Positions 34,736 through 47,462 of a stretch of 64,000 nucleotides of DNA are shown piece by piece. Under the pieces are notes generated by a model. That model was not told the DNA's origin. It made no database searches and saw only the letters and a list, made by a program, of their open reading frames with translations. The position numbers and the translations under genes are program-made. The DNA comes from Chromobacterium subtsugae (GTDB lineage Bacteria > Pseudomonadota > Gammaproteobacteria > Burkholderiales > Chromobacteriaceae): positions 310,001 to 374,000 of the forward strand of contig NZ_JYKA01000001.1 in assembly GCF_001676875.1 (NCBI RefSeq), in the 5' to 3' direction. Position 1 is the stretch's first letter; each line of letters begins with the position of its first letter.

Positions 34736-35006
34736 CCTTATATATACCTTTCCCGAGCCAAGCCCCGCCCGCTCGATCCAACATCGCCCGGATTGTAGGC
34801 CATACACCCCTCGCGCGCCCGATCACCGCCGCTCTTGCCTGATATGAGCGCGCCCATCCGCATGGAAACCCGTGGCCAAAAAGCCTCACATCGCCATATG
34901 GATAAAACTACGAAAAACAAAAGTAAAAATAATATTACTGTTTAAAACCAATATCTTGCACGAACACTTCACACATATCAGCAACATAATTTGAACATTT
35001 GCACCA
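34736..35006. other. AT-rich intergenic region before the small RNA
   Basis: This stretch has no open frame that looks coding. The right half (34900-35006) is markedly AT-rich compared with the rest of the window and leads into the small-RNA promoter. The promoter of the DUF2520 gene should lie near 34740-34800. Confidence 0.5.
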
Positions 35007-35035
35007 TTTACATAGCTGATGCTTTCTTTTAGTAT
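35007..35035 (+). promoter_or_regulatory. Sigma70 promoter of the candidate small RNA
   Basis: TTTACA at 35007-35012 (five of six to TTGACA) is followed after exactly 17 bases by TAGTAT at 35030-35035 (four of six to TATAAT). A start at about 35042 is predicted. The porin coding region begins 360 bases further, after a strong terminator. Confidence 0.6.
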
Positions 35036-35041
35036 GATCGC

Positions 35042-35135
35042 AAGCGAATTCAAGCAGATGCAATCTGCGCCCGCCTGGATTCACTTCAAGTCACGTTGAT
35101 TTTTCAGCCCGCCCGCATTGGCGGGCTATTTTTTT
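35042..35135 (+). ncRNA. Candidate trans-acting small RNA upstream of the porin gene
   Basis: About 94 bases between a sigma70-type promoter and a strong intrinsic terminator, without an open frame. The first part has a 6-bp hairpin (35054-35059 with 35063-35068). A less structured middle (35069-35105) ends in a U-rich run. The terminator has an 8-bp stem (35106-35113 with 35120-35127), a six-base loop and a run of seven T. Hairpin, U-rich single strand and terminator with a long U tail are the layout of Hfq-binding RNAs. I know no family it matches. An alternative is a terminated leader of the porin transcript, but the porin start lies 274 bases beyond the terminator. Confidence 0.55.
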
Positions 35136-35295
35136 GCCTAAATCACCTCAATCCGCCAAGAAATTCCGCAAAAACAGGTGTTCCTACGCACTGACGTTTT
35201 TTTGCAACAAGACAATCCGCCGCGCAAATACAAAGTAACAGTCCTGACTATTCAATAACTTACGACACAAAAAATCGAACATTTACTTTGCTAAA

Positions 35296-35313: not shown

Positions 35314-35408
35314 GATCACAACACTATCCGCCAGCCATAGTTGCATTTTCACAACCCAGCCAATAGCATTTGCTCACATTCCTAAAACCTAAAAAGGATG
35401 ACTTGACC

Positions 35409-36551
35409 ATGAAAAAAAGTCTGATTGCCCTGCTGGTAGCCACCCTGCCGGCTGCAGCTTTTGCTGACGTAACCATCTACGGTAAGATCAAAGGCGGCGT
35501 TGAGTACAACGACAACGGCGTAACCAAGCAAACCAACATCGACGATCTGGGTTCCCGCATCGGCTTCAAGGGTGCTGAAGATCTGGGCAGCGGCCTGAAG
35601 GCTATCTGGCAAGTTGAGACCGGCTTCGGCATTGATGGCACCGGCACCGGCTCCTCCAGCGGCACCTTCGCCAACCGCAACTCCTTCCTGGGCCTGCAAA
35701 GCAACCTGGGTACCCTGCGCTTCGGCAACGTGTCCAACTTCCTGGACAGCGACATGGGCACGGTTGACACCTGGGAATACAACAGCAACGCGCTGGGTCT
35801 GGGCATCTTCACCCGCGACGCTACCCGCCTGAAGAACTCCGTACGCTACGACCTGCCGGCCGTGGTTCCGGGCCTGACCGCCGCCCTGCAATACGGCGCC
35901 AAGGAAACCAAGGGCCAAGCATCTGCCGATCGCGAAACCTACAACCTGGGCCTGGGCTACGAGAACAGCGGCTTCTTCGGCAAGTACAACTACAGCCACG
36001 AAAGCAAAGCGGTTAGCAGCGTTGCCGTTGTCGTAGACAAAGCCACTGGCAAAATCGAATCGGTTGGCGTAGTAGATGCCAACCACACTGCAGTTGCCAG
36101 CTTCGCCCAGAATGACACTGCTAACGAGAAGCACCGCCTGGAAGTTGGCTACAATGCCAACAACCTGTTCGTTGGCTTCGGCTACCAGCAAGCCAAGGGC
36201 GGCCTGGATGTAGTTGGCAGCGCTTGGGGCAACCAAGTTATCGCTGGCTTCGCAGTACCGAATGGCCAAACCATCAGCGCGAACGGCAAGGTTAAGACTC
36301 GCGAATACGCTCTGACCGCTGGCTACACCTTCGGCGCCATCACCCCGAAATTCACCTACGCTCACGGCGACAAGGTTGAAGTCGGCGGCGTGAAGCTGGA
36401 CAACACCCAATACGACCAGTACGTACTGGGCGCTGACTACGCTGTATCCAAGCGCACCACCATCGGCGCTCAATACGGCCAGATCGCTGTCAAGGGCACC
36501 GGCAACAACGACCTGAAGTCCTTCGGCCTGAACATGGTTCACGCATTCTAA
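35409..36551 (+). CDS. Gram-negative outer membrane porin (Porin_4 type)
   Basis: A trimeric general porin of the beta-proteobacterial type. The 380-residue precursor has a signal peptide (MKKSLIALLVATLPAAAFA) followed by DVTIYGKIKGGVEYN, the usual first strand, and LGSRIGFKGAEDLGSGLKAIWQVE, the conserved loop-strand segment. It ends with the outer-membrane signature NMVHAF, with terminal Phe. AAGGAT precedes the ATG; the frame extends 13 codons upstream. Codon use (many GTT, GCT, CGC, AAC codons) differs from neighbours and indicates very high expression. A strong terminator follows. Confidence 0.95.
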   Translation: MKKSLIALLVATLPAAAFADVTIYGKIKGGVEYNDNGVTKQTNIDDLGSRIGFKGAEDLGSGLKAIWQVETGFGIDGTGTGSSSGTFANRNSFLGLQSNLGTLRFGNVSNFLDSDMGTVDTWEYNSNALGLGIFTRDATRLKNSVRYDLPAVVPGLTAALQYGAKETKGQASADRETYNLGLGYENSGFFGKYNYSHESKAVSSVAVVVDKATGKIESVGVVDANHTAVASFAQNDTANEKHRLEVGYNANNLFVGFGYQQAKGGLDVVGSAWGNQVIAGFAVPNGQTISANGKVKTREYALTAGYTFGAITPKFTYAHGDKVEVGGVKLDNTQYDQYVLGADYAVSKRTTIGAQYGQIAVKGTGNNDLKSFGLNMVHAF

Positions 36552-47236: not shown

Positions 47237-47457
47237 GTGTGGATAGCCTGTGTCAACCACACCCCTCTGTCCCTGCACCTGAGATTTTCCGGCTGGATCA
47301 GCCGTTAGCCCCTTCGGTGGACGCCACGCAGGCGCCGCTCTCCAGATTGCGCAAGCCGGCAGCCGCCGACCCCGTGATACAGTCCTTTTGCCTGAGCGAT
47401 TGCGGGTGCACTTGCGCCTTCGGCGGCGGCCGCGGGGCCGCTCTCTCCTGTATGACC
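47237..47457 (-). ncRNA. Tandem glycine riboswitch of the gcv operon
   Basis: The gcvT leader holds two glycine aptamers. The first is at about 47374-47457: it starts with CAGGAGAGAGCGG and ends after CAGGCAAAAGGACTGTATC. The second is at about 47262-47346: it starts with CTGGAGAGCGGC and ends after ACAGAGGGG. Both show the GGAGAG start and the AGG-CA-AAA/GGAAAAT end region of the class. After them comes a 6-bp stem GTGTGG/CCACAC followed by TTTT (47238-47262), which may be the expression platform. In this class glycine binding usually turns the operon on. Confidence 0.88.
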
Positions 47458-47462
47458 CGGCG

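What the first reader, a model, noticed from the sequence alone, without database searches (positions are those of the whole stretch)
35007..35135. Candidate small RNA between a sigma70 promoter and a strong terminator, upstream of the porin gene
TTTACA-17-TAGTAT leads to a segment of about 94 bases with no open frame, a 6-bp hairpin, a U-rich stretch and an 8-bp terminator with seven T. This is the layout of Hfq-dependent RNAs. Position before a porin is suggestive, since porin mRNAs are common targets of such RNAs, but that link is inference. I recognise no family.
Basis: partly seen in the sequence, partly recalled or inferred. Interest (0 to 1): 0.72.

Follow-up and report, generated by a model that had tools for sequence, protein, structure and literature searches.

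The report
Chromobacterium small RNA targeting a porin
A short RNA gene beside one outer-membrane channel gene carries a conserved stretch that matches the start signal of a second channel gene elsewhere in the genome, so it probably switches that channel off, much as MicF does in E. coli.

Summary
In detail: a sigma70-type promoter (35007-35035), about 94 nt, then an 8-bp terminator with seven T. As patterns these are no more than chance. Conservation makes the case: the gene is found in 19 of 19 genomes of the genus (Chromobacterium and close relatives), with a promoter box found once per genome, a 5' hairpin, and a core, TTCAAGTCACGTTGAT, identical in 18 of 19.

The core gives the likely function. 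It pairs over 18 nt, with one bulged base, just ahead of the Shine-Dalgarno (SD) sequence of a second, distant porin gene. Among 780 predicted gene starts (854 kb of 4.81 Mb sampled) that gene ranks first. The complementary 14-mer is exact in 17 of 19 genomes, always before that porin; the other two have altered but still pairing versions. The adjacent porin has its own conserved promoter and only an 8-nt match, which energetics do not support.

Best reading: a new, genus-restricted, probably Hfq-dependent trans-acting RNA that blocks translation of porin 2. It works like MicF or MicC but matches neither family. No transcript was tested.

The parts
35007..35035 (+). Promoter of the small RNA: TTTACA-17-TAGTAT, with a conserved box TTTACAKAGNNNNNGCTTTCT (35007-35027)
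   Evidence: box occurs once per genome in 19 of 19 genus genomes
35042..35135 (+). Small RNA gene, about 94 nt; start inferred about 7 nt after the -10 box (+/- 2)
   Evidence: 19 of 19 genus genomes; conservation island
35046..35082 (+). 5' hairpin (GAATTC...GGATTC base); the sequence varies between species but a 5' hairpin is in the minimum-energy fold of all 19 homologues
35085..35104 (+). Core TTCAAGTCACGTTGAT plus T-rich stretch; pairs with the porin-2 ribosome-binding region (TTCAAGTCA 35085-35093, bulged C 35094, GTTGATTTT 35095-35103)
35106..35135 (+). Rho-independent terminator: 8-bp stem 35106-35127, then seven T 35129-35135
35341..35369 (+). Separate promoter of the adjacent porin 1 (TTGCAT-17-TAGCAT), both hexamers and spacing the same in 18 of 18
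   Evidence: inferred from consensus and conservation
35399..35406 (+). TGACTTGA in the porin-1 SD-to-ATG spacer, complementary to core TCAAGTCA (8 nt); possible weak second target
   Evidence: not supported by energetics (rank 263 of 780)
35409..36551 (+). Porin 1 (380 aa, Pfam Porin_4 / Porin_1)

Best explanation
Window 35042-35135 encodes a trans-acting small regulatory RNA of about 94 nt, made from its own sigma70-type promoter and ended by its own terminator. Its conserved linker between the 5' hairpin and the terminator (UUCAAGUCAcGUUGAUUUU) pairs with AAAAUCAAC-UGACUUGAA, which abuts the SD of a distant porin gene (porin 2, G000:C56:21944, 393 aa). The duplex would lie within the ribosome's landing zone, so the likely effect is to block translation and destabilise the porin-2 mRNA, with Hfq bound to the U-rich stretch and 3' tail. 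Shown by computation: the conserved gene, promoter, structure, pairing, its first rank among sampled gene starts, and its persistence in all 19 genomes. Inferred: transcription, Hfq binding, the sign of regulation (repression) and the inducing signal, which is unknown.
For: Homologue in 18 of 19 genus genomes by DNA and 19 of 19 by covariance model, beside porin 1 in 18 of 19 and elsewhere in G014. Promoter box once per genome in 19 of 19. Porin-2 leader: 9+9 paired nt with one bulge, next best of 780 gene starts 13 nt, 0 of 20000 shuffled linkers as good. Rank 1 of 780 by linker duplex (-23.4, next -21.6 kcal/mol) and by full-length co-folding (-16.7, next -15.8; mean -4.7, sd 2.6; 0 of 400 core shuffles as good). 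ATCAACTGACTTGA exact in 17 of 19 genomes, one exact place each, 17 of 17 before the porin-2 start. The two exceptions still pair: in G011 the leader lost a base and the RNA changed just beside the core (about 17 pairs with a 2-nt bulge, read by eye); in G014 both partners changed (13 contiguous pairs into the SD plus 12 more, duplex string). Own pair -12.8 to -24.6 kcal/mol in 19 of 19. Both porins are Pfam porins. Hfq in 19 of 19.
Against: No expression data. Promoter and terminator as patterns are at chance level. The core is predicted to sit in a weak hairpin in 18 of 18 homologues other than G014 (5-6 pairs in 17, 4 pairs in L018; minimum-energy strings). Only 854 kb of 4.81 Mb was ranked and the lead of porin 2 over the next gene start is about 1-2 kcal/mol by energy, though large by paired length. 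In a 4 x 4 cross-species co-folding the native RNA is the best partner in only 1 of 4 leaders (G011); the G001 RNA beats the native one on the G000 and G014 leaders, so strict co-evolution is not shown. The porin-2 leader has other conserved stretches as well. Covariation in the 5' hairpin is weak: 1 of 11 pairs changed on both sides.
Confidence: 0.82

Rival explanations
1. The element is the 5' leader and attenuator of the adjacent porin 1: transcription starts at 35042 and the terminator is conditionally read through into the porin.
For: It lies upstream of porin 1 on the same strand in 18 of 19 genomes.
Against: Porin 1 has its own TTGCAT-17-TAGCAT promoter, the same in 18 of 18, and a separate conservation island, with poorly conserved DNA between. 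In G014 the RNA gene has no porin within the 1.5 kb read on either side, yet keeps promoter box, hairpin and terminator. I did not search for an alternative antiterminator fold.
Confidence: 0.06
2. A trans-acting RNA whose main targets are other, unexamined genes; the porin-2 match is one of several or incidental.
For: Most such RNAs have several targets (established knowledge); the ranked sample covers about 18% of the genome. Of the 17 rows of the whole-genome search for TGACTTGA before ATG, six open a frame of 200 aa or more: the two porins, an MFS transporter, an oxidoreductase, a DedA-family gene and an apparently internal site in a phage-like gene (names by eye). The DedA-like string recurs in G002, G003 and G007.
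Against: Of these only the porin-2 site was found to extend to 18 nt and only the two porin sites were followed and found in 18 or more genomes; the MFS, oxidoreductase and DedA-like sites were not followed further. Of 10 other near-complements of the 16-nt core with up to 3 mismatches, most have no start nearby; two (L075 integrase-like, L076) have an ATG frame of 391 and 163 aa just downstream, with 3 mismatches each. A 13-nt partial match at a dipeptide-binding-protein gene in the window is present in 2 of the 6 orthologues whose start my script located, out of 19 fetched.
Confidence: 0.1
3. The RNA activates porin 2 by opening an inhibitory leader structure rather than repressing it.
For: The pairing stops just before the SD in most species; the sign cannot be read from sequence.
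Against: The duplex abuts the SD and in G011 and G014 extends into it, which normally blocks initiation. An inhibitory leader hairpin was not sought.
Confidence: 0.1
4. The RNA mainly controls the adjacent porin 1 through the 8-nt match in its SD-ATG spacer.
For: TGACTTGA is present in 18 of 18 adjacent porin-1 leaders and absent in G014, where the core is altered and the gene is not adjacent; 3 of 780 gene starts carry this 8-mer (porin 1, porin 2, the DedA-like gene).
Against: Rank 131 of 780 by duplex and 263 of 780 by co-folding; 197 of 400 core shuffles are as good; 860 of 20000 shuffled linkers reach 8 nt. The whole porin-1 leader is highly conserved, so conservation of the site adds little.
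Confidence: 0.15

Closest known systems
MicF (Escherichia coli; gene next to ompC, represses ompF)
   Same: sRNA gene next to one general porin that acts on another porin. The ompC-micF organisation and MicF as repressor of OmpF were seen in passages of PMC5745476; pairing at the ribosome-binding region is recalled.
   Different: No Rfam match; here the RNA gene and neighbouring porin are on the same strand, whereas micF and ompC are divergent (recalled); different core and promoter; the regulator is unknown.
MicC (E. coli; gene next to ompN, represses ompC)
   Same: 109 nt, porin-adjacent, pairs with the 5' UTR of a different porin mRNA (passages of PMC5745476).
   Different: No Rfam match; MicC lies opposite to ompN; the element here was found only in the Chromobacterium genus.
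Small RNAs of Neisseria (e.g. NgncR_162/163, PMC9973317)
   Same: Same broad group of bacteria; trans-acting sRNAs.
   Different: PMC9973317 (search listing and start of abstract only) deals with metabolic pathways, not porins. Among 300 genomes drawn from the order, model R1 gave outside the genus only five matches of 25-28 bits, not read.

Membership tests
Hfq-dependent trans-acting sRNA (class) | Own promoter and rho-independent terminator with U tail | tested here: met
   Seen in 18 of 18 aligned homologues and in G014
Hfq-dependent trans-acting sRNA (class) | Conserved short region complementary to a distant mRNA's translation-initiation region | tested here: met
   Core to porin-2 leader
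Hfq-dependent trans-acting sRNA (class) | Hfq encoded in the genome | tested here: met
   PF17209 in 19 of 19
Hfq-dependent trans-acting sRNA (class) | A transcript exists, binds Hfq and regulates the target | not testable with these tools
   needs RNA-seq, co-immunoprecipitation and reporter assays
MicF (Rfam) | Match to the family covariance model | tested here: not met
   not among gathering-level matches nor among the 12 matches with E up to 5
MicC (Rfam) | Match to the family covariance model | tested here: not met
   as above
anti-hemB / Betaproteobacteria toxic sRNA (Rfam RF02837, RF02278) | Score at or above the family's gathering cut-off | tested here: not met
   20.2 against 49.5 and 19.9 against 50 bits, probably owing to the generic terminator (inference)
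cis-acting leader / attenuator of porin 1 | Lies in the transcript of the downstream gene | tested here: inconclusive
   separate conserved porin promoter and a porin-free context in G014 argue against; no transcript data

The most novel reading that the evidence does not exclude
An independently evolved MicF-like porin switch in Betaproteobacteria: an RNA gene placed beside porin 1 shuts off porin 2, and through the same core also tunes porin 1, so that one RNA sets the ratio of two general porins in the outer membrane. In G014, where the gene is not beside porin 1 and the core has changed, the porin-1 site is absent and the porin-2 pairing is remodelled.
Probability: 0.3. Interest if true: 0.65.

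Novelty: new member of a known kind. Interest (0 to 1): 0.55.

Why it matters
The listings that I saw show no paper on a small RNA of Chromobacterium itself (20 of 29, 20 of 74, 3 of 3 and 10 of 38 papers listed). If true, this gives the genus a porin-controlling RNA with a named target and exact pairing to test. It would also be an example, outside enterobacteria, of an RNA gene sitting next to one porin and acting on another, which bears on why that arrangement recurs. Porins govern uptake of nutrients and many antibiotics (established knowledge), and two porins are in the table of the 30 proteins with most spectral counts of a C. violaceum proteome (PMC4913304, table passage; whether they correspond to porin 1 or 2 was not established).

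Tried and rejected
Rfam families: nothing reached its gathering score at this place. Coding reading: short frames differ between homologues. Homologues outside the genus: the model gives 15 of 42 other family genomes at E 1.7e-4 to 0.1, about 19-28 bits; 12 genus genomes also have a second weak match at E 0.007 or worse, not read. In the order, 5 genomes outside the genus of 300 searched match at E 2.7e-4 to 8.6e-4, not read. I read 11 of the family ones (L039-L049) and by eye saw mainly terminator resemblance. Two, in genus g3 (L040, L041), lie upstream of a porin (47-48% identical to porin 1) with a TTTACA-17-TAGAAT promoter and the same layout but another core. A search for targets of that core found no porin, and their score is at the noise level, so I leave them open. 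Of five one-mismatch promoter boxes outside the genus, the two in G031 and G032 were read; they overlap the start of a pilU-like gene on the other strand (name recalled). Whole-genome near-complements of the 16-nt core: 11 places including the RNA itself against 4 for the control; none of the other 10 is a convincing gene start. A dipeptide-binding-protein match in the window (13 nt) is in 2 of 6 located orthologue starts. A FadL-like gene ranking third by co-folding resembles the RNA's own hairpin, which varies between species.

Mistakes corrected: my porin query was translated one base out of frame, so the identities and the ATG positions printed there are wrong (positions by 4 nt); replace them. 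The gene caller (716 starts, porin 1 rank 125, porin 2 start missed, many GTG starts that looked spurious) was replaced by that. Unpaired probabilities look unreliable for several rows and are not used. In one search the printed 'core' and duplex of seven rows picked another TCAAGT or none; for those rows only the full-length co-folding energies are used. The alignment behind R1 misplaces some terminator columns, so R1 carries no terminator pairs. The listing stops within G009, so recurrence of TGACTTGA sites was read from eight genomes and part of a ninth. Of the 17 rows, two are one site with two ATGs, and one (L059) was not printed; one search shows it to lie in a long frame. After the first check I changed the confidence of the best explanation from 0.83 to 0.82 for the narrow energy lead of porin 2 and the 1 of 4 in the cross test.

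Full report
What is there. The 94-nt segment folds at -32.3 kcal/mol, better than all 200 shuffles (z -3.3).

Conservation. A DNA search finds the element in 18 of 19 genomes of the genus. A covariance model built from those 18 finds it in 19 of 19, the nineteenth (G014) at E 1.6e-5. A scan of named genomes with the promoter box gives 13 records: ten Chromobacterium, 'Neisseriaceae bacterium TC5R-5', 'Xenophilus sp. AP218F', and Arcticibacter, which is unrelated and probably chance. In 18 of 18 the RNA lies 314-339 nt, core to ATG, upstream of an orthologous porin (62-77% identity to porin 1 in the 17 others). A 20-nt profile shows an island at 35006-35145 (0.61-0.96), poorer DNA after it (0.38-0.71 over 200 nt), and a second island from about 35346 that holds most of the porin-1 promoter and the leader (0.85-1.00). 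The porin-1 promoter TTGCAT-17-TAGCAT is the same in 18 of 18. The RNA is therefore most likely its own transcription unit and not the porin's leader.

Anatomy. From 5' to 3' the RNA has a hairpin whose base is GAATTC...GGATTC in the window. In other species the hairpin changes sequence, most of all in L012, L013-L017 and L018, yet a 5' hairpin is in the minimum-energy fold of 19 of 19. RNAalifold finds only one of 11 pairs with changes on both sides, so the covariation evidence is weak. Next comes the linker TTCAAGTCACGTTGAT, identical in 18 of 18, then a T-rich stretch and the terminator. In G014 the linker reads TCAAGTGAAGTTG. The promoter box TTTACAKAGNNNNNGCTTTCT, searched with one mismatch allowed, occurs exactly once, without mismatch, in each of 19 genomes, at the RNA gene. 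In 42 other family genomes it occurs five times, each with one mismatch; the two of those that I read overlap the start of a gene on the other strand. A conserved stretch within the promoter spacer suggests control by a regulator, which I could not name.

Target. Sites complementary to the core before ATG were sought in the whole own genome: TGACTTGA with ATG within 22 nt gives 17 rows, against 4 for the reversed control pattern. Six open a frame of 200 aa or more, and two of these are Pfam porins. One is the adjacent porin 1. The other, porin 2 at G000:C56:21944 (393 aa, 38.5% identical to porin 1), has the leader ACAAAATCAACTGACTTGAAAGGATCTGCAATG. Its AAAATCAAC-TGACTTGAA pairs with the RNA's TTCAAGTCA-c-GTTGATTTT over 18 nt with one bulged base, abutting the SD. 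Against 780 predicted starts from 854 kb of the genome, porin 2 is first by linker duplex energy (-23.4, next -21.6 kcal/mol), first by paired length (18 against 13 for the next, and 0 of 20000 shuffled linkers), and first by co-folding of the full RNA (-16.7, next -15.8 kcal/mol; 0 of 400 core shuffles as good). The lead is narrow by energy and wide by paired length.

Conservation of the target site. The 14-mer ATCAACTGACTTGA is found exactly in 17 of 19 genomes, in one exact place each, and in 17 of 17 that place is just upstream of the porin-2 SD. With one mismatch allowed there are five more places, of which one is the porin-2 leader of G014 and four are not before a porin. The stretch upstream of the SD is kept while the SD-to-ATG spacer varies, although other parts of this leader are also conserved. 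The two exceptions are informative. In G011 the leader has lost one base (ATCAAC-GACTTGAAAGG) and the RNA, with the core unchanged but altered beside it, reads CCTTTCAAGTC-AC-GTTGAT, which by eye pairs over about 17 nt and into the SD. In G014 the RNA core and the leader (ATCAACCGACTTGAAAGGAA) both differ, yet the duplex string has 13 contiguous pairs reaching into the SD and 12 more. Co-folding each species' own pair gives -12.8 to -24.6 kcal/mol in 19 of 19. In a cross test of four species the native RNA is the best partner for only one of four leaders, so I do not claim strict co-evolution.

Porin 1. The adjacent porin carries TGACTTGA between SD and ATG in 18 of 18 genomes; the G014 orthologue, which is not beside the RNA gene, lacks it. 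The energetic evidence is negative: rank 131 of 780 and 263 of 780, and 197 of 400 core shuffles do as well. I treat it as a possible secondary target only.

Mechanism. The duplex with porin 2 covers the zone just ahead of and touching the SD, so I infer inhibition of translation initiation, as for MicF and MicC. The core is predicted in a weak hairpin in 18 of 18 homologues other than G014, which pairing would have to open. Hfq is encoded in all 19 genomes, and the U-rich stretch plus U tail fit Hfq binding (established knowledge; not tested). The signal is unknown.

Comparison. E. coli MicF (next to ompC, acting on ompF) and MicC (next to ompN, acting on ompC) share the arrangement of an RNA gene beside one porin that acts on another (passages of PMC5745476). 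There is no family match to either. The RNA appears restricted to this genus: 300 genomes drawn from the order give, besides G000 and G014, only five matches at E 2.7e-4 to 8.6e-4, which I take as noise and did not read. The papers listed by the searches (most lists were capped) include none whose title or abstract start reports a Chromobacterium small RNA. Of those papers I read passages of five.

Limits. There are no expression data, the ranked sample is 18% of the genome, gene starts were predicted by my own script, and the genomes are related, so counts are not independent events.

Noticed in passing
window 47257-47460 (-): Two glycine riboswitch aptamers in tandem (Rfam RF00504, 65 and 44 bits).
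   Followed up: no
L040 and L041 (genomes G030, G029, another genus of the family), about 1470-1600 on the minus strand: Upstream of a porin: TTTACA-17-TAGAAT, a hairpin, a different core TTTCGAGGTTAGGTTTTT and a terminator. Same layout as the window's RNA, so possibly a diverged relative or a parallel case; no porin target found for its core.
   Followed up: partly
L038 (genome G014), minus strand, about 1470-1610: The RNA gene sits with no porin within the stretch read, while keeping the promoter box; the porin-1 orthologue of that genome (L106) lacks the TGACTTGA site.
   Followed up: partly
L066 / G000:C56:63153: A DedA-like gene has TGACTTGA upstream of its start; similar strings recur in G002, G003 and G007. 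Possible minor target.
   Followed up: no
L056 / G000:C12:249292 and L064 / G000:C45:327433: An MFS-transporter-like and an oxidoreductase-like gene also have TGACTTGA within 30 nt of a start; conservation not examined.
   Followed up: no
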